Shown piece after piece: positions 39,986-49,571 of a DNA stretch of 64,000 nt. Source of the stretch: Frigoribacterium sp. PvP032 (GTDB lineage Bacteria; Actinomycetota; Actinomycetes; Actinomycetales; Microbacteriaceae); contig NZ_JAFIBM010000001.1 of NCBI RefSeq assembly GCF_017833035.1, forward strand, positions 2,687,762 through 2,751,761. Direction: 5' to 3'. The translations under genes and the position numbers were made by a program. Numbering within the stretch: the stretch's first letter is position 1; every line of letters starts with the position of its first letter. The notes below the pieces were generated by a model that was not told where the DNA came from, ran no database searches, and saw only the letters and a program-made list of their open reading frames with translations.

Positions 39986-40912
39986 TCAGAGGCCGAGCGC
40001 GCCCGTCGGCAGCAGCGCGTGCACGCCCCAGGTCTGGTTCGCCACCTGGGTGACGCGCAGGTCGACGACCGCGCTCGCGAAGGCGAGGGCGGTCGCTCTG
40101 TCGACGGAGAGCAGGGCCGCGAGCCACGTGACCATCGCGTCGAGGGCGTCGCCCGTCGCCACGTCGAGGTCGGCGTCGAAGCCGAACGTGATCCGCCCCG
40201 CGGGGGTCTCGGCGTGCACGCTCGAGAGCGGGCGCTCGTCGACCAGGTCGATCCGCACCTCCGTCGTCATCGGGCACTCGATCGCCGTGCCGCCGACCTC
40301 GCCGTCGCCCTGGGCCGCGTGGCCGTCGCCGAGGTACAGGAGCGCGTCGTCGACCTGCACCGGCAGCCACAGGGTCGACCCGGCCACGAGCTCGCGGCAG
40401 TCGACGTTGCCGCCCGCCGTCGTGCGCGGCGGCGTCGTGGAGTGCTCGCCCGGCTCGGCCGGCGCCACGCCCGTCACGCCGAGGAACGGCGCGGTCGGCA
40501 CGGTGAGCCCCCGACTCTCGGTGGCGACGCCGGCATCGGCGTCGATCTCCCAGAGCAGCCAGGCGGGCGGGACGTCGGCCAGGCCGAGCCGCGTCGTGAC
40601 CGGCGTCTCGCGGCCGCCTGCGACCGTCCAGCCCCACTCCCCCGGCCGCAGGTCGACGAAGGTGACGCCGAGCATCTGGCCGGGGCGCGCGCCCCGGACC
40701 GCGACGGGGCCGGTGAGCGCGTGGCCCCGCGCCTCGGGGAACAGACGAGGCCGCACCTCGCCGGGCGTCCGCTGGCGCTCGAGGTGCCCTGAGGCGTCGA
40801 GGGAGCCGACGACGAGCTCGTCGCCGGGGTCGACGGTGAGCACGGGAGCGTGGTCGCGGGAGTAGACGTCGTTCGTCGTCTCCGTGCTCGGGTCGAGCCG
40901 GTGCCGTGTCAC
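39986..40912 (-). CDS. Acetamidase/formamidase family amidohydrolase
   Basis: 308 residues, GTG overlapping the stop of the GntR gene by 4 bp. FmdA_AmdA signatures: PVLTVDPGDELVVGSLDASGH near the N-terminus, LTGPVAVRGARPGQMLGVTF, GNVDCRELVAGSTLWLPV, LLYLGDGHAAQGDGEV and ECPMTTEVRIDL. Members hydrolyse short amides to ammonia and the acid with a metal site (Asp/His/Cys in NVDCRE and GDGHAAQGDGE). It ends the regulated peptide/GGT operon, so ammonia release from imported amides is a plausible role. Confidence 0.9.
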   Translation of the reverse strand: MTRHRLDPSTETTNDVYSRDHAPVLTVDPGDELVVGSLDASGHLERQRTPGEVRPRLFPEARGHALTGPVAVRGARPGQMLGVTFVDLRPGEWGWTVAGGRETPVTTRLGLADVPPAWLLWEIDADAGVATESRGLTVPTAPFLGVTGVAPAEPGEHSTTPPRTTAGGNVDCRELVAGSTLWLPVQVDDALLYLGDGHAAQGDGEVGGTAIECPMTTEVRIDLVDERPLSSVHAETPAGRITFGFDADLDVATGDALDAMVTWLAALLSVDRATALAFASAVVDLRVTQVANQTWGVHALLPTGALGL

Positions 40913-41664
40913 GCGGCACCGCCGGCGGCGGGCACGGGCGCGGCACGGAGCTGCTCGACGACCTCGGCCGGGGCCGTCCGGCCCAGGTACCCGACGCGCG
41001 ACTCCCGCACGTGCCGCCCCATCAGCTCGGCCGCCCGCTCGGCGTCGCCCGCGTCGATCGCGGCGAGGATGACCCTGTGGTCGGGCCAGAGCCGCTTGCC
41101 GCGGGAGAACTCGTCGAGGGCGTAGAGCCACTCGATCTTGCGCGACAGCTGCCGCAGCAGCGTCGCGAGCGTGCTGCTGCGGCTGAGCTCGGCGATGCCG
41201 ATGTGGAACCGCTCGTTCAGGTCGACCAGCCGGTCGAGGTCGTCCCGGGCGACGGCGTCGTCGCCCTCGTCGAGCAGCTGCTCGAGCGACCGCCGCACGC
41301 GCCGCCAGTCGTCGTCCGCGTCTGCGCCGCCGCCTCCGCCGCCGGCACCGCCGGCACCCTCGTCGCCCCCGCTGCTGAAGCGCGCCCTGGCCCGGCCCGC
41401 GGCACGCCGCGCGGTCGAGATCTCGAGCGCCTCACGGACGGCGAACAGGTCGTCGGCCTCGTCGAACGGGATCTCGGCCACGCGCGACCCGACGTTCGGC
41501 CGGGACTCGACGAAGCCCTCGGCCTCGAGACCGCGGAGCGCCTCGCGCACCGGCACCCGCGAGACGCCGTAGCGCTCGGCGAGCGCCGCCTCCGTGATGC
41601 GCGTGCCCGGCTGCAGCACGCCCTGGACGATGTCCGCTCGCACGGCGTCGACGACGCTCAGCAC
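40909..41664 (-). CDS. GntR regulator of the FadR subfamily (FCD domain)
   Basis: 251 residues from a GTG with AGGGGG 6 nt upstream; a GTG 30 nt further up is an alternative. N-terminal winged helix: VRADIVQGVLQPGTRITEAALAERYGVSRVPVREALRGLEAEGFV, the GntR recognition pattern. The C-terminal FCD domain has the metal/effector helices (VDLNERFHIGIAELS, WPDHRVILAAIDAGD, LMGRHVRESR). A Gly/Ala/Asp-rich insertion lies at about residues 97-115. It sits inside the operon whose promoter carries a TTGTATACAA palindrome, the typical FadR-type site, so autoregulation of the operon is likely. Confidence 0.9.
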   Translation of the reverse strand: MLSVVDAVRADIVQGVLQPGTRITEAALAERYGVSRVPVREALRGLEAEGFVESRPNVGSRVAEIPFDEADDLFAVREALEISTARRAAGRARARFSSGGDEGAGGAGGGGGGADADDDWRRVRRSLEQLLDEGDDAVARDDLDRLVDLNERFHIGIAELSRSSTLATLLRQLSRKIEWLYALDEFSRGKRLWPDHRVILAAIDAGDAERAAELMGRHVRESRVGYLGRTAPAEVVEQLRAAPVPAAGGAA

Positions 41665-41739
41665 GCGTGCCCCCTGGTGGACGGGGCGGAGCACTGCGAG
41701 ACACGACGGGACGGGCCGCGGCCCGCACGACGGGGTCGC

Positions 41740-43417
<1,678 letters not shown>

Positions 43418-43434
<17 letters not shown>

Positions 43435-45283
43435 AGGCCTGCGCTCCTCGGGGGTTGGCGGCGGCGCCCAGCACGCCGGTCTCTGGATCTCGGGTGACGC
43501 TCGACAGCCGGCCGAGCGACCAGTCTCCCGAGCGGGTGACGACGTGCCCGCGGGCCTCGAGCCCGGCGATCAGCTCGTCGCCGAGGCGGTCCTCGACGAC
43601 GACGCCGCCCGGCGTCCAGGTGCGCGGCCAGAACGAGCCGGGGAACGACGTCGTGTGCAGGGCCGGGGCGTCGACGGCCTGCTGCGGCGTCCAGCCGCCG
43701 ACGATCGTGCGCAGCAGGTACAGCAGCTGCCACTGGTCCTGCTGGTCGCCGCCGGGCGAGCCGAGGGCGACCACCGGCTGGCCGTCACGCAGCACGAGCG
43801 TCGGGGTGAGCGTCGTGCGGGGCCGACGGCCCGGCTCGAGCGTCGAGGCGGTCCCCTCCTCGAGCCAGCTCATCTGGAGGCGGCTGCCGAGGCAGAAGCC
43901 GAGCTCGGGGACGGTCGGCGACGACTGCAGCCAGCCGCCCGACGGCGTCGCCGAGACGACGTTGCCCCAGCGGTCGACCACGTCGATGTGGCAGGTGTCG
44001 CCGCGGGTCTCGCCCGTCGGCGCGACGTCGGGCTCGGCGCCCGGCTGACGGGCGTCGTCGGTCGGCACGGCGACGGGCGCCGCGGAGAACGAGCCGACGG
44101 TGGGCTCCCCCACGCCGGCGCCGGGACCGGCCACCTCGTCGTCGGTGCGGAGCCTCGGGAGGCGGCCCGCGCCTCCTGCGCCCCCGGCCTCGCCCGGACG
44201 CAGCTCGTGCGACGCGGTCGACCCGATGAGCGCGCGACGCTCGGCCGCGTACTCGGCCGACAAGAGCCGATCGAGCGGGACGTCGCGGTCGCCGTACCAG
44301 GCCTCGCGGTCGGCCATCGCGAGCTTCAGCGCCTCGACGATCGTGTGGGCGCCCTGGACCGTCGACGGGTCGAGCAGCTCGTCGGGCAGCGGGTCGAGCA
44401 TCGCCAGCACCTGCAGCAGGGCCGGGCCCTGCCCCCAGGCGCCGGTCTTCGCGACGACGTGGCCGCGGAACTCCACCGTCGTCGCCTCCTCGGTCGAGGC
44501 GCGGAAGGCCGCCAGGTCGGAGGCGCGGATCACGCCCGCGTGTTCGCCTCCCGTCGAGTGCCGGTGCGGCGTCCGCACGAACGCGTCGATCGACGTCGCG
44601 ACGAGGCCCTCGGCCCACTCGGTCCGTGCGGCGTCGATGCGGCCTCGGCGGTCCGCGCCTCCTGCGGCCACGAGCCCGTCGAGCACCCGGGCGTACGCCT
44701 CGTTCGTGACCATCGCGCCCGGCGCGGGCGGGGCGCCGTCGACGAGCCATCGGTCGGCCGAGCTCGGCCAGTGCTCGACGAACAGCTCCGCGACCGCGCC
44801 GATGGTCTCGGTCACGCGTGCGGTGATCGGGTGCCCGTCGCGGGCGTAGCCGATGGCGTAGGCGAGCACGTCGGCGAGCTCCCAGGTGCCGTGGTCGCGG
44901 AGCAGCAGCAGCCACGCGTCGACCGCGCCGGGCACGGCAGCGGCGAGCGCGCCCGAGCCGGGCACGAGGTCGAGGCCCTCTGCACGGTAGTGCTCGACCG
45001 TCGCCTCGGCGGGTGCCGGGCCCTGTCCCATCAGGACGACCGGCCGCCCCGGCTCGTCGGCCGTCGCGAACACGCCCGTCATGTCGCCGCCCGGGCCGTT
45101 CAGGTGCGGCTCGACGACGTGCAGCACGAACGCGCCGGCGACCGCCGCGTCGAACGCGTTGCCGCCGCGCTCGAGCACCGACTGGGCCGAGGCCGTCGCG
45201 AGCCAGTGCGTCGAGGCGGTCATGCCGAAGGTGCCGCGGAGGTCGGGCCGGGTGGTGAACGCAGGAGGTGCGGTGTAGGTCAC
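43418..45283 (-). CDS. ggt: Gamma-glutamyltransferase-family hydrolase
   Basis: 621 residues, GTG start. Ntn-hydrolase made as a precursor that self-cleaves before a Thr; the nucleophile is in RGDTCHIDVVDRWGN (T430). The large subunit shows ASTHWLATASAQSVLERGGNAFDAAVA and LNGPGGDMTGVF. The small subunit has SATPSGGWLQSSPTVPELGF and the late LALGSPGGDQQ motif. No signal peptide is visible, so it is probably cytoplasmic, unlike secreted GGTs that degrade external glutathione. This fits hydrolysis after uptake by the operon's own ABC importer. Substrate could also be a cephalosporin-like or other gamma-glutamyl amide. Contains Gly/Ala insertions near residue 370. Confidence 0.9.
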
Positions 45284-45288
45284 GAGGA

Positions 45289-46167
45289 TCAGGTCCGTTC
45301 GCGGGAGGTCGGGTCGAGGGCGTCGCGCAGCGCGTCGCCGACGAGGTTGAAGCCGAGGCAGATGACGGCGATGGCGAGGCCGGGGACGACGGCGGCGAAC
45401 GGGGCGTTCGACAGGTACTGCTGCGCGTCGGAGAGCATGATCCCCAGACTGGCCGTCGGCGGCTGGATGCCGAGCCCCAGGAACGAGAGCAGCGCCTCCC
45501 CGATCACCGCGACCGGCATGATGACCGTCGCCTGCACGATGATCGCCGAGACGCAGTTCGGCAGCACGTGGGCGAAGATCACCCGCAGCCCGGTCGCGTC
45601 CATGGTGCGGGCGCTCAGCACGAAGTCGGTCGAGCGGATGCGCATCGTCTCGCCGCGCACCACGCGGATCATGGTGGGGATCTGCGCGATGCCGAGGGCG
45701 ACCACCGCGTTGCCGAGGCTCGGCCCGCTGATCGCGGCGAGCGCCACGGCGATGATCAGGAACGGGAACGCGAGCATCACGTCGGTCAGGCGCGAGACGA
45801 TGGCGTCGAGCCAGCGCCAGTAGCCCGCGATCAGCCCGAGCGGGGTGCCGACCACGACGGCCAGCACGACGCTGAGCACGCCGACGACGAGCGAGACGCG
45901 GATGCCGTAGACGGTGCGCGAGAGGATGTCGCGGCCGAGGTCGTCGGTGCCGAGCAGGAACCCGACCGTGCCGGGCAGCTGGAACGGAGTGTCGAAGTGC
46001 ACCTCGGCCGGGCCGTAGGGCGCGATCAGGGGCGCGGCGATCCCCGCCACGAGCACGACGAGCAGCATCACGCCGCCCGTGACGCCGAGCTTGTTGCGGC
46101 GCAGCTGGCCCCAGACGCGGCCCCTGTCGGAGCCGAGCTCGTGGGCGGTGGGCACGAGGACGGTCAT
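45289..46167 (-). CDS. Peptide ABC permease (DppC/GsiD type)
   Basis: 292 residues, start codon sharing one base with the preceding permease's stop. N-terminal helix LGVTGGVMLLVVLVAGIAAPLIAPY, then FLLGTDDLGRDILSRTVYGIRVSLVVG and EAA-like loop ARTMDATGLRVIFAHVLPNCVSAI. The C-terminus NLVGDALRDALDPTSRERT is classic for DppC-type proteins. Forms the channel with the DppB-type protein encoded upstream. Confidence 0.94.
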   Translation of the reverse strand: MTVLVPTAHELGSDRGRVWGQLRRNKLGVTGGVMLLVVLVAGIAAPLIAPYGPAEVHFDTPFQLPGTVGFLLGTDDLGRDILSRTVYGIRVSLVVGVLSVVLAVVVGTPLGLIAGYWRWLDAIVSRLTDVMLAFPFLIIAVALAAISGPSLGNAVVALGIAQIPTMIRVVRGETMRIRSTDFVLSARTMDATGLRVIFAHVLPNCVSAIIVQATVIMPVAVIGEALLSFLGLGIQPPTASLGIMLSDAQQYLSNAPFAAVVPGLAIAVICLGFNLVGDALRDALDPTSRERT

Positions 46168-47120
46168 CAGGAGGCTCCTCCGACTCGGATGCGCGGGTTG
46201 AGGACGCTGTAGAGCACGTCGACGACGAGGTTGATCAGGATGTAGCCGAGAGTGATGACGAGCACGACCGCCTGCACCACCGGGTAGTCGCGGGTGAAGA
46301 CCGCGTCGAGGGTGAGCTTGCCGAAGCCCGGCAGGGCGAAGATGCGCTCGGTCACGACGGCGCCCGAGATCAGCCCGCCGAGCTGCAGGCCGACGATCGT
46401 GACGACGACGATCATCGAGTTGCGGAGCCCGTAGCGGAGCAGCACCCGGCCCCGCCCGAGGCCCTTCGCGCGTGCCGTCCGGACGTAGTCGGTCGTCATC
46501 GTCTCGATCATCGACGCCCGCGTCTGCCGCATGATGACGGCGGCGAGGGAGGTGCCGAGGATGAGGGCCGGGAGGGTCAGGTGCACGAGCGCCTGCCACG
46601 GGTCCTCGGTCACGGGCACGTACCCGGAGGCGGGGAAGATGCCCAGCCCGACGGCCAGCCACAGGATGGCCAGGATGCCGAGCCAGAAGTTCGGCACGCT
46701 CAGGCCTACGAGGGCGGCGGCGTTGGCCATCCACTCTGGCCAGCGGCCGCGCCAGCGCTCGGCGACGACGCCCAGGGCGACGCCGACGAGCACGGCCACG
46801 ACGATGGCGTAGAGCGCGAGCCACAGGGTGACCGGCAGGGTCGCGCCGATCAGGTCGGCGACGGGGGTGCCGGTGCGGGTCGACTGGCCGAGGTCGCCCC
46901 GGAGGAAGGCGCCGACGAACCGGAGGTACTGCACGACGAGCGGGTCGTCGAGCCCGAGGTCGGCGCGGATCGCCGCGACCTGCTGCGGGCTCGCCTCCTC
47001 ACCCGCCAGAGCGAGGGCAGGGTCGCCCGGCAGCTGCCGGACGCCGATGAAGACGACGACGGAGGCGAGGACGAGCGTCACCGCCGACTGCCACAGGCGG
47101 GTGAGGAGGTAGCGCGCCAT
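46167..47120 (-). CDS. Peptide ABC permease (DppB/GsiC type)
   Basis: 317 residues. Opens MARYLLTRLWQSAVTLVLAS, with RQLPGDPALALAGEEASPQQV, EAA loop AKGLGRGRVLLRYGLRNSMI and the ending NLVVDVLYSVLNPRIRVGG. Six membrane helices. The gene starts 3 nt after the binding-protein stop. Gene order (binding protein, B, C, GGT, ATPase) places an enzyme gene inside an importer operon. Confidence 0.94.
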   Translation of the reverse strand: MARYLLTRLWQSAVTLVLASVVVFIGVRQLPGDPALALAGEEASPQQVAAIRADLGLDDPLVVQYLRFVGAFLRGDLGQSTRTGTPVADLIGATLPVTLWLALYAIVVAVLVGVALGVVAERWRGRWPEWMANAAALVGLSVPNFWLGILAILWLAVGLGIFPASGYVPVTEDPWQALVHLTLPALILGTSLAAVIMRQTRASMIETMTTDYVRTARAKGLGRGRVLLRYGLRNSMIVVVTIVGLQLGGLISGAVVTERIFALPGFGKLTLDAVFTRDYPVVQAVVLVITLGYILINLVVDVLYSVLNPRIRVGGAS

Positions 47121-47123
47121 GGC

Positions 47124-48791
47124 TCAGCTGGCCTCGACGAAGGCGGCGGTGCTGAGGCGCACGACGCCGTCGGCGAAGGTGGAGACGCCGGCGATGTCGT
47201 TCGACAGCGCGGTGAGGCTGCGCACGCGGTACAGGTAGATGATCGGCGAGTCCTCCTGCACCTTCTCGACGACCTGGCCGTAGAGCTCGGCCCGCTCGTC
47301 GACGTCGGTCGTCGAGGCGGCGTCGCTGAGCAGCTCGTCCACCTCGTCGTCGCTGTAGCCGCTGTAGTTGTTGCCGGCGCCGGTCGACAGGAAGCTGAAC
47401 ATGTTGCCGTTGGGGTCGATGCGGCCCGACCAGCCGAGCTGCAGCGCCTCGAAGTCGCCCTCGGTCTGCACGTCGAGCAGCGTCGAGTACTCGACCGGCG
47501 TGATGGTCAGCTCGAAGCCGCCCTCGGCGACCTGTGCCTGCAGCGCCTGGGCGAAGCGCACGGTGTCCGGGTTGTTGCTCACCTGCATGTCGATGGCGAG
47601 GGGAGTCTCGACGCCCTCGTCCTCGAGCATCTGCATCGCCGCCTCCGGGTCGTAGTCGGGGCAGGCGTCGCTGGCGTCGGTGGCGAAGGGGCTGCTCGGC
47701 GAGATCGGCGAACAGGCGGGGTCGTAGAGGCCGCCGAAGACGGTCTTCACGAGGGCCTCTCGGTCGATCGACATCGACAGGGCCTGGCGCACGGCGGCGT
47801 TGCTCGCCAGCGGGCCGTCGAGCTGGACGGGGTCGGTGCCGATGCCGTCCTGGTTGCCGATGTTGACGGTCAGGCCCTGGTAGCCCAGCGAGCCGACCTC
47901 GAGCACGGTCAGCGAGTCGTCCTCCTTGAGCGTGCCGACGTCCTGCGTCGACATCGAGTCGGCGACCTGCACGTCGCCCGACTGCAGGTTCGCCGCACGG
48001 ATGCTCGCGTCGGTGATGATGCGGTAGGTGATCGTGTCGAAGTGGGCCGACTCGGCGTCGTAGTAGAGCGGGTCGCGCTCGACGGTGATCGAGGTCTGCG
48101 GCACGCGCTCGACGAACTTGTACGGGCCGACGCAGACGGGGGCGTCGCCGAACGCGTCGCCGGCCGAGGCGAGCGCCGTGGGCGACATGACCATGCCCGC
48201 GCGGTCGGCGAGGGCCGCCGTCAGCGGGGCGAACGGCTCTGAGTAGGTGACCTCGACGGTCTCGTCGTCGACCGCCGAGATGCCGGTGATCGGGCCGAGC
48301 TCGCTGCGGCGCGACGAGTCGTCCTTGTCGAGGCCGCGCTGCAGGGTGCCGACGACCGCCTCCGCGTCGAGCGGGGTGCCGTCGGCGAACACCGCGTCGG
48401 TGCGCACGGGGAACGTGACGGTCAGGCCGTCGTCGCTGACCTCGGGCAGCTCCGTGGCGAGCATCGGGACGATGTCGCCCTCAGCGTCGATGTCGTAGAG
48501 CTTCTGGCACATCGTCTCCATCACGTAGCGCGTGTAGAGGGACGAGGAGGTGGTGGGGTCGAGCCGGTCGGGCTCGGCCGAGAGCGCCATGACGAGGTCG
48601 CCGCCCTCGACGATCGCCTTGTCGCCGATCGGGGCGGACGAGATGTCCTCCCGGCTGCTCGTGGCGTCGGTGTCCGCCGTCTGGACCTGCTGGCACCCGG
48701 TCGCCACGAGGGCGATGCCGAGGGCTGCGGCCGGCAGCGCGAGCGCGCGACGCCGGGCGGCCGGTCGCGGGGAGTGCGAGGTCAGAGGCAT
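47124..48791 (-). CDS. Peptide-binding lipoprotein of the GGT operon (SBP family 5)
   Basis: 555 residues. Signal peptide and lipobox LVATGC (C33). Family 5 features: LVMALSAEPDRLDPTTSSSLYTRYVMETM, FPVRTDAVFADGTPLDAEAVV, AVRQALSMSIDREALVKTVFGG and VEYSTLLDVQ. Captures substrate outside the membrane. First gene of the minus-strand operon, with a sigma-70-like promoter and a GntR-type palindrome 67-95 nt upstream. Substrate unknown; the gamma-glutamyltransferase and amidase suggest gamma-glutamyl peptides or amides. Confidence 0.94.
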   Translation of the reverse strand: MPLTSHSPRPAARRRALALPAAALGIALVATGCQQVQTADTDATSSREDISSAPIGDKAIVEGGDLVMALSAEPDRLDPTTSSSLYTRYVMETMCQKLYDIDAEGDIVPMLATELPEVSDDGLTVTFPVRTDAVFADGTPLDAEAVVGTLQRGLDKDDSSRRSELGPITGISAVDDETVEVTYSEPFAPLTAALADRAGMVMSPTALASAGDAFGDAPVCVGPYKFVERVPQTSITVERDPLYYDAESAHFDTITYRIITDASIRAANLQSGDVQVADSMSTQDVGTLKEDDSLTVLEVGSLGYQGLTVNIGNQDGIGTDPVQLDGPLASNAAVRQALSMSIDREALVKTVFGGLYDPACSPISPSSPFATDASDACPDYDPEAAMQMLEDEGVETPLAIDMQVSNNPDTVRFAQALQAQVAEGGFELTITPVEYSTLLDVQTEGDFEALQLGWSGRIDPNGNMFSFLSTGAGNNYSGYSDDEVDELLSDAASTTDVDERAELYGQVVEKVQEDSPIIYLYRVRSLTALSNDIAGVSTFADGVVRLSTAAFVEAS

Positions 48792-48857
48792 GTGTGATCC
48801 GATGCTCGGGGTACGGGAGAGAGTGGATTGAATGCAATCAGACCCGATGACGCGATC

Positions 48858-48886
48858 TTGTATACAACTTGTTACGGACGTGTAAA
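48858..48886 (-). promoter_or_regulatory. Promoter with embedded FadR/GntR operator for the GGT operon
   Basis: On the minus strand TTTACA (48881-48886) and TATACA (48859-48864) are separated by 16 nt, a good -35/-10 pair. TTGTATACAA (48858-48867), a perfect 10-bp palindrome of the TNGTNNACNA class recognised by FadR-type GntR proteins, overlaps the -10. The operon encodes just such a regulator at 40909-41664. Bound regulator would block polymerase. Confidence 0.75.
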
Positions 48887-49018: not shown

Positions 49019-49079
49019 AGGCGACCCGCACCTTCGAGGGGCATGATCGGGGGTGCCCCCTGCCCGAGAGGACTCCTGC

Positions 49080-49571
49080 GTGAACACCAACGACGAGGTC
49101 GACCTGATCATCGACGCCTGGGCGCGCGTGCGGCCCGACATCGACTTCGCAGCGCTCGACGTCTTCTCGCGGCTCCGCCGCATCTCCCGACGGCTCGACC
49201 GGGTGCGTGCCGAGGCGTTCCGGCGCTCGGGCCTCGAGATCTGGGAATTCGACGTCCTGTCGACCCTGCGCCGGGCCGGCGAGCCCTTCGAGCTCAGCCC
49301 CAAGGACCTCGTCACGGCGACCATGGTCACGAGCGGCACGATGACGAACCGGCTCGACCGCCTCGTCGAGCGCAGCCTCGTCGAGCGCCGTGCCGACCCG
49401 CGCGACGGCCGCGCCGCCCTCATCCGCATCACGGAGGCGGGCGTCGACCTGGTCGACCAGGCCATGCTCGACCTGCTCGAGGCCGAGCACTCGCCGCTCG
49501 GGTCGCTCACCCGTCAGCAGCGCGACCAGCTGGCCGACCTGCTGCGCGAGCTCGGCACCGGCTTCGCCTGA
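49080..49571 (+). CDS. MarR-family transcriptional regulator
   Basis: 163 residues from a GTG with GAGAGGA about 8 nt upstream; an earlier in-frame codon at 49053 adds 9 residues. Winged helix: WEFDVLSTLRRAGEPFELSPKDLVTATMVTSGTMTNRLDRLVERSLVERRADPRDGRAALIRIT, with the SGTMTNRLDRL recognition helix and wing RADPRDGR. Convergent with an SDR gene about 45 bp away and divergent from the GGT operon. Its target is unclear; the tandem repeat in its upstream region is a candidate. Confidence 0.92.
   Translation: MNTNDEVDLIIDAWARVRPDIDFAALDVFSRLRRISRRLDRVRAEAFRRSGLEIWEFDVLSTLRRAGEPFELSPKDLVTATMVTSGTMTNRLDRLVERSLVERRADPRDGRAALIRITEAGVDLVDQAMLDLLEAEHSPLGSLTRQQRDQLADLLRELGTGFA

What the first reader, a model, noticed from the sequence alone, without database searches (positions are those of the whole stretch)
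39986..48886. Self-regulated import-and-hydrolysis operon with gamma-glutamyltransferase and amidase
Seven tightly packed minus-strand genes: binding protein, two permeases, GGT without signal peptide, fused ATPase, FadR-type regulator and acetamidase. The promoter has TTTACA-16-TATACA with a TTGTATACAA palindrome over the -10. Substrate import followed by intracellular gamma-glutamyl hydrolysis and deamidation is suggested. This is the most coherent candidate for an undescribed system.
Basis: partly seen in the sequence, partly recalled or inferred. Interest (0 to 1): 0.7.

Follow-up and report, generated by a model that had tools for sequence, protein, structure and literature searches.

The report
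Regulated import operon with GGT-like hydrolase
A Frigoribacterium genome carries a gene set, found again in many related bacteria, that probably imports an unknown small molecule and cuts it inside the cell with an enzyme labelled as a glutathione enzyme whose glutathione-type binding pocket appears to be lost.

The parts
47124..48791 (-). substrate-binding lipoprotein (SBP_bac_5), first gene; lipobox ATGC; conserved GWSGR-x-DP where the dipeptide-binding protein DppA has Asp
   Evidence: motif in all 84 binding proteins scanned
46167..47120 (-). inner-membrane permease, OppB/GsiC type
45289..46167 (-). inner-membrane permease, OppC/GsiD type
43418..45283 (-). GGT-family (PF01019) Ntn hydrolase of LmbA2991 type; no hydrophobic N-terminus; predicted self-cleavage between Asp429 and Thr430
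   Evidence: only PF01019 gene in the genome
41740..43434 (-). fused double ABC ATPase (GsiA-like organisation)
40909..41694 (-). GntR regulator with FCD ligand domain
39986..40912 (-). acetamidase/formamidase-family protein; accessory gene of a Frigoribacterium subset
48858..48867 (.). probable operator O1 TTGTATACAA, overlapping the putative -10
48828..48837 (.). probable operator O2 TTGCATTCAA, 30 bp from O1
48859..48886 (-). putative promoter TTTACA-16-TATACA
   Evidence: a TTTAC element at the same place is visible in several Frigoribacterium, Curtobacterium and Marisediminicola relatives; not found by the strict scan

Best explanation
It is an actinobacterial solute-salvage operon. The lipoprotein catches a small molecule outside the cell, the Opp/Gsi-type permeases and fused ATPase import it, and a cytoplasmic LmbA2991-type Ntn hydrolase (self-cleaved before Thr430) attacks a carbonyl of the imported molecule, forms an acyl-Thr intermediate and releases it with water. 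The acyl group is not gamma-glutamyl; by analogy with LmbA2991 it is most likely a short carboxylate-bearing (oxalyl or 2-oxoacyl-like) group. The GntR-FCD protein, encoded in the operon, binds O1 over the -10 and O2 30 bp downstream and represses until the solute or its product is present. In some Frigoribacterium an acetamidase gene stands at the 3' end as well. Shown by computation: gene content, order and conservation, paired sites, enzyme relationship, replacement of the gamma-glutamyl pocket. Inferred: transport, repression, self-cleavage, catalysis, acyl identity.
Against: No biochemical data on any operon member. The 80 loci were chosen by binding-protein similarity (best 80 of 119), so the conservation is conditional: in the order only 41 of 396 genomes have such a binding protein, and of 40 Microbacteriaceae loci with a close GGT relative only 6 carry the six-gene operon. 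On the tree the label 'in operon' needs 10 changes, at least 3 forced by well-supported branches, so the pairing was gained or lost repeatedly. Three loci have SBP-permease-permease-ATPase without the enzyme, two of them with the exact site. In Streptomyces, where LmbA2991 relatives are common (68 of 101 genomes), a transporter lay beside the gene in 3 of 20 loci examined (about 2.7 kb upstream seen). The oxalyl idea rests on the activity of relatives in an antibiotic pathway.
Confidence: 0.7

Rival explanations
1. It is a glutathione or gamma-glutamyl-peptide importer with a cytoplasmic GGT, an actinobacterial counterpart of S. aureus GisABCD-Ggt, with a divergent gamma-glutamyl pocket.
For: Same parts as GisABCD-Ggt (PMC10355420: abstract, passages and section 8 read). 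Among NCBIfam models the binding protein scores best with GsiB and permease B with GsiC; the ATPase scores 455 bits with GsiA, level with its best model; permease C scores third with GsiD; all are below the curated Gsi cut-offs. No other PF01019 gene in the genome.
Against: All seven gamma-glutamate-contact positions are replaced in 75 of 75 operon enzymes and kept in 6 of 6 canonical-looking GGTs of the same bacterial family. TIGR00066 score 224.5 against a cut-off of 357.85. The authors of the LmbA work state that LmbA and Ant6 lack gamma-glutamyl activity (PMC6085292, passage; LmbA2991 is not named in that clause). The binding protein has Arg where DppA has the Asp that, as recalled, holds the free amino end, and GsiB reads differently there.
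Confidence: 0.17
2. The enzyme is an oxamate-type amidohydrolase (HpxW-like) and the operon salvages an oxamate-containing or other amide compound; in Frigoribacterium the acetamidase finishes the deamidation.
Against: HpxW is a distant hit compared with LmbA2991. Oxamate would not be expected to need a peptide-type transporter (inference). The acetamidase is absent from 48 of the 56 six-gene loci.
Confidence: 0.08
3. The GGT-like enzyme is a passenger in a peptide-transport operon and does not act on the imported solute.
For: Close relatives outside the operon are common (34 of 40 family loci lack the six-gene operon; one of these, L067, has a more distant transporter beside it); three transporter operons lack the gene.
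Against: The gene sits between permease and ATPase genes in 56 of 80 loci and is joined to the same transporter again in a second order (12 of 80), which argues for functional coupling.
Confidence: 0.05

Closest known systems
Staphylococcus aureus GisABCD-Ggt (glutathione import system)
   Same: ABC importer with binding lipoprotein and permeases, encoded with a signal-less cytoplasmic GGT-family enzyme (PMC10355420: abstract, passages and section 8 read)
   Different: S. aureus Ggt is a shown gamma-glutamyl enzyme; its paper says gisA is presumed divergent. Here the enzyme is LmbA2991-type without the gamma-glutamyl pocket, the fused ATPase is inside the operon, and a GntR with paired sites is encoded. 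That survey was filtered to Firmicutes. Sequences of the two systems were not compared here.
LmbA2991 / LmbA-like Ntn hydrolases (LmbA, Ant6, SibY, TomL, HrmG, Por11)
   Same: Same fold and GDTCH self-cleavage site as LmbA2991, identical residues at the seven pocket positions tested, 57% identity over 567 aligned residues. Only LmbA2991 of this list was compared here
   Different: The pathway-specific members work in antibiotic biosynthesis. The role of LmbA2991 itself is called unclear in PMC5519988. The window enzyme lies in an import operon, in a neighbouring clade.
E. coli iaaA-gsiABCD
   Same: Gsi-type importer with iaaA in the same locus (PMC10355420 passage); IaaA as an Ntn hydrolase and GsiA as a fused ATPase are recalled
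   Different: IaaA is of another Ntn family (recalled); NCBIfam Gsi cut-offs are not reached.
Bacillus halodurans 2nlz (deposited as cephalosporin acylase)
   Different: Clearly more distant than LmbA2991; its natural substrate is not known to me.
HpxW oxamate amidohydrolase
   Same: GGT-fold family member with a non-glutamyl substrate (recalled)
   Different: Far weaker match than LmbA2991; no transporter known to me.

Membership tests
gamma-glutamyltransferase proper (EC 2.3.2.2) | PF01019 fold with Thr nucleophile and oxyanion Gly-Gly | tested here: met
gamma-glutamyltransferase proper (EC 2.3.2.2) | TIGR00066 equivalog cut-off | tested here: not met
   224.5 bits against 357.85
gamma-glutamyltransferase proper (EC 2.3.2.2) | residues that hold the gamma-glutamyl alpha-amino and carboxylate groups (B. 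licheniformis 4y23 R,T,E,E,D,S,S) | tested here: not met
   Q,S,G,R,M,T,T in 75 of 75 operon enzymes; canonical set kept in the 6 of 12 outgroup loci that have a GRETAP motif; roles of the residues recalled
gamma-glutamyltransferase proper (EC 2.3.2.2) | gamma-glutamyl transfer or hydrolysis activity | not testable with these tools
   needs an assay
LmbA2991-type Ntn hydrolase | Asp-Thr self-cleavage motif (D420/T421 in LmbA2991) | tested here: met
   D429-T430, invariant in 18 of 18; alignment
LmbA2991-type Ntn hydrolase | groups with LmbA2991 in a tree and by fold | tested here: met
LmbA2991-type Ntn hydrolase | C-C bond hydrolysis with oxalate release | not testable with these tools
   needs an assay
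Gis/Gsi glutathione import systems | Gsi-type transporter parts plus co-encoded cytoplasmic Ntn hydrolase | tested here: met
   layout only:
Gis/Gsi glutathione import systems | GsiA/B/C/D curated model cut-offs | tested here: not met
   GsiB 178 of 594, GsiC 298 of 463, GsiD 244 of 484, GsiA 455 of 1077 bits
Gis/Gsi glutathione import systems | glutathione is the substrate | not testable with these tools
   sequence argues against a gamma-glutamyl-acting enzyme
GntR regulators, FCD subfamily | GntR HTH plus FCD domain | tested here: met
   window; two relatives
GntR regulators, FCD subfamily | binds the palindrome upstream of its operon | tested here: inconclusive
   site co-occurs with the GntR gene (54 of 57 against 0 of 12), but two complete operons without GntR also have it; no binding data
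formamidase FmdA / acetamidase | PF03069 domain | tested here: met
   105 bits against 27
formamidase FmdA / acetamidase | FmdA equivalog NF045496 | tested here: not met
   75 bits against 500
oxamate amidohydrolase HpxW | orthology to HpxW | tested here: inconclusive
   distant sequence and structural match only; pocket of HpxW not compared residue by residue

The most novel reading that the evidence does not exclude
This operon shows the native job of the orphan LmbA2991 group: a nutrient-salvage route in which a solute is imported and opened by a GGT-fold enzyme that hydrolyses an oxalyl or 2-oxoacyl C-C (or C-N) bond rather than a gamma-glutamyl amide, under a GntR switch with two operators 30 bp apart. 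The antibiotic-pathway enzymes LmbA and Ant6 would then be recruits from a catabolic import system.
Probability: 0.25. Interest if true: 0.75.

Novelty: new variant of a known kind. Interest (0 to 1): 0.5.

Why it matters
PMC5519988 left the roles of the many actinobacterial GGT homologues, LmbA2991 included, open and called them functionally unassigned. This work ties one large group of them to a dedicated binding protein, importer and regulator. The unknown substrate can now be sought directly: purify the binding protein and find its ligand, or use the paired sites as a reporter and screen inducers. It also warns that a 'gamma-glutamyltransferase' annotation in these bacteria should not be read as glutathione metabolism.

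Tried and rejected
Gamma-glutamyl hydrolysis: rejected as leading reading after the residue comparison. Seven-gene unit: rejected, since among 80 loci the acetamidase is in 8, all Frigoribacterium. Acetamidase as proof of an amide product: not used. Binding-protein matches in the PDB did not identify a ligand. Neighbouring genes gave no pathway: a divergent gene of one cluster, whose scanned member is DUF1275, precedes the binding protein in 29 of 80 loci, and other neighbours vary. Streptomyces neighbourhoods of LmbA2991 relatives show an inositol-phosphatase-like and an FAD-oxidoreductase-like gene (named by eye, not scanned) but no pathway. Papers: ten searches of the open PMC library; no listing I saw describes this actinobacterial operon or its operator. 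Searches returned none, 90 listed 15 of 29 papers (none on this), 91 one unrelated. Listings were capped, and subscription papers are not held. PMC4780272 was seen in passages and not used. HpxW pocket not compared.

Limits of the counts. The 20 loci (L164-L183) were fetched but not analysed, because one search had given named loci. L047 and L136 are the same Leucobacter contig, so the 82-region and 75-enzyme counts hold it twice. L094 had too little upstream sequence and was dropped from the motif count. Seven of 80 loci without a recovered enzyme ORF, and one row of 480 residues or fewer, were left out of the tree. Of 12 outgroup loci, 6 have the GRETAP motif and the canonical residues; the other 6 do not have the canonical set, and one of them, L195, is LmbA2991-like by motif. 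Genes were called by my own codon-score script, and three enzyme starts were miscalled. Some of the random control stretches may overlap real sites.
Full report
Where it is. The window lies in a complete 3.33-Mb genome. The closest named relatives are Frigoribacterium, with binding proteins up to 97% identical, so I treat the organism as a Frigoribacterium.

Observation. Neighbouring genes overlap or lie 3-45 nt apart. The -35 TTTACA, 16-nt spacer, -10 TATACA and the TTGTATACAA palindrome over the -10 are in the sequence. The strict promoter scan did not list this promoter.

Conservation. In the genus, 16 of 16 genomes have the binding protein. All 15 besides the window were fetched and have the six core genes in order, and 8 of these 15 also have the acetamidase. 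A search of one genome for each of 84,980 species with a binding-protein alignment gave 119 relatives, of which the best 80 were kept. In 56 of those 80 the order binding protein, permease, permease, GGT, ATPase, GntR is uninterrupted, 8 of the 56 with FmdA. Two more have a small extra called ORF. Twelve have the GGT gene first and no GntR; 11 of the 12 show a divergent gene of one cluster, whose scanned member is LysR-type. Three lack the GGT gene. Seven are truncated or broken (genes called by my own codon-score script). Hosts of the six-gene form include Curtobacterium, Arthrobacter, Brevibacterium, Kineococcus, Pseudonocardia, Leucobacter and Puerhibacterium; hosts of the GGT-first form include Amycolatopsis, Kibdelosporangium and Streptomyces ruber. 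These loci were chosen by binding-protein similarity. Unconditionally the operon is patchy: 41 of 396 genomes of the order have such a binding protein, and of 40 family loci with a close GGT relative only 6 carry the six-gene operon.

Regulation. TTGTATACAA with at most one mismatch lies upstream in 65 of 82 regions (22 exact). In random stretches of the same loci the rate is 1.6%, which may still include some real sites. Split by architecture over the 80 loci it is 54 of 57 with the GntR gene, 0 of 12 GGT-first loci, and 8 of 10 others; one locus had too little upstream sequence. Standalone GGT genes have none: 0 of 31 even at two mismatches. In the whole own genome the exact palindrome occurs at one place, this promoter, and one other place has one mismatch; the control pattern read backwards had 5 places at up to one mismatch, so it is the position and not the number that stands out. 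A second site follows: in the window TTGCATTCAA at 48828-48837. Pairs exactly 30 bp apart occur in 48 of 82 regions and 31 bp apart in 11 (spacings are not exclusive); no other spacing from 12 to 60 exceeds 7. Controls gave 13 of 3984 random stretches and 0 of 1640 shuffles. Thirty base pairs is about three helical turns, so two dimers would sit on the same face (inference). Against a simple story, two Arthrobacter operons with neither GntR nor GGT keep the exact site.

Residue test. At seven positions that hold the gamma-glutamyl group in B. licheniformis GGT (R, T, E, E, D, S, S; roles recalled), all 75 operon enzymes (window included, one contig counted twice) and LmbA2991 have Q, S, G, R, M, T, T. 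The 34 standalone relatives agree except for an Ala in one and a Ser in four. Six GGT-family proteins from other genomes of the same bacterial family, those with a GRETAP motif among 12 outgroup loci, keep the canonical residues. The catalytic Thr and the oxyanion Gly pair are unchanged in all these groups. The enzyme therefore works like a GGT-fold Ntn hydrolase but very probably not on gamma-glutamyl compounds.

The transporter. Binding protein and first permease score best with E. coli glutathione-importer models, the ATPase level with its best model and the second permease third, all below the curated Gsi cut-offs. All 84 binding proteins scanned read GWSGR-x-DP. In the alignments the Arg falls where E. 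coli DppA has Asp in one deposited chain (8z1y) and Arg in another (8z1z); as recalled, that Asp holds the free amino end of a dipeptide. GsiB (1uqw) reads differently there. The ligand is thus perhaps not an ordinary peptide, which is a lead and not a test.

Comparison. The nearest described system is S. aureus GisABCD-Ggt: an ABC importer encoded with a cytoplasmic, shown gamma-glutamyl enzyme for glutathione sulfur (PMC10355420; abstract, passages and section 8 read). The layout is alike; membership as a glutathione system fails the residue test and is otherwise untested, and I had no S. aureus sequence to compare. E. coli iaaA-gsiABCD is a second parallel. I found no description of the actinobacterial operon in the listings of ten searches of the open PMC library (given under Tried and rejected).

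How it most likely works. Import of a solute, hydrolysis in the cytoplasm through an acyl-Thr intermediate, and repression by the GntR at paired sites over and just downstream of the promoter until an effector is present. The acyl group is unknown; oxalyl or 2-oxoacyl is the best guess from LmbA2991. The acetamidase is a local addition in one Frigoribacterium subset.

Verdict. The gamma-glutamyl and deamidation parts are not supported. It is a new variant of a known kind, of moderate interest, because it gives an orphan enzyme group a testable context.

Noticed in passing
L133:5489-6190 and 28 other loci: A gene of one cluster (the scanned member, in L133, is DUF1275) lies divergently next to the binding-protein gene in 29 of 80 loci, across Micrococcaceae, Brevibacterium, Kineococcus and Pseudonocardia, so it may share the operator region.
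   Followed up: partly
L096 and L105 (Arthrobacter sp. Br18, H41): Transporter operons without the GGT and GntR genes still carry the exact TTGTATACAA site, which suggests a regulator encoded elsewhere.
   Followed up: no
L204-L223 (Streptomyces): LmbA2991 relatives are followed by an inositol-monophosphatase-like gene in 18 of 20 loci and often by an FAD-oxidoreductase-like gene (names by eye), a second conserved context for the enzyme.
   Followed up: partly
window 49053-49571 (+): A MarR-family gene lies divergently upstream of the operon in the window and in 7 of 15 other Frigoribacterium loci.
   Followed up: partly
L134, L141, L142, L145, L149, L150, L155-L157, L161, L162: The same transporter and enzyme are rearranged (GGT first) with a divergent gene of a LysR cluster (one member scanned) in place of the GntR and its site: an apparent regulator swap.
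   Followed up: partly
own genome position 682734-683345: A second acetamidase/formamidase-family gene lies far from the operon.
   Followed up: no
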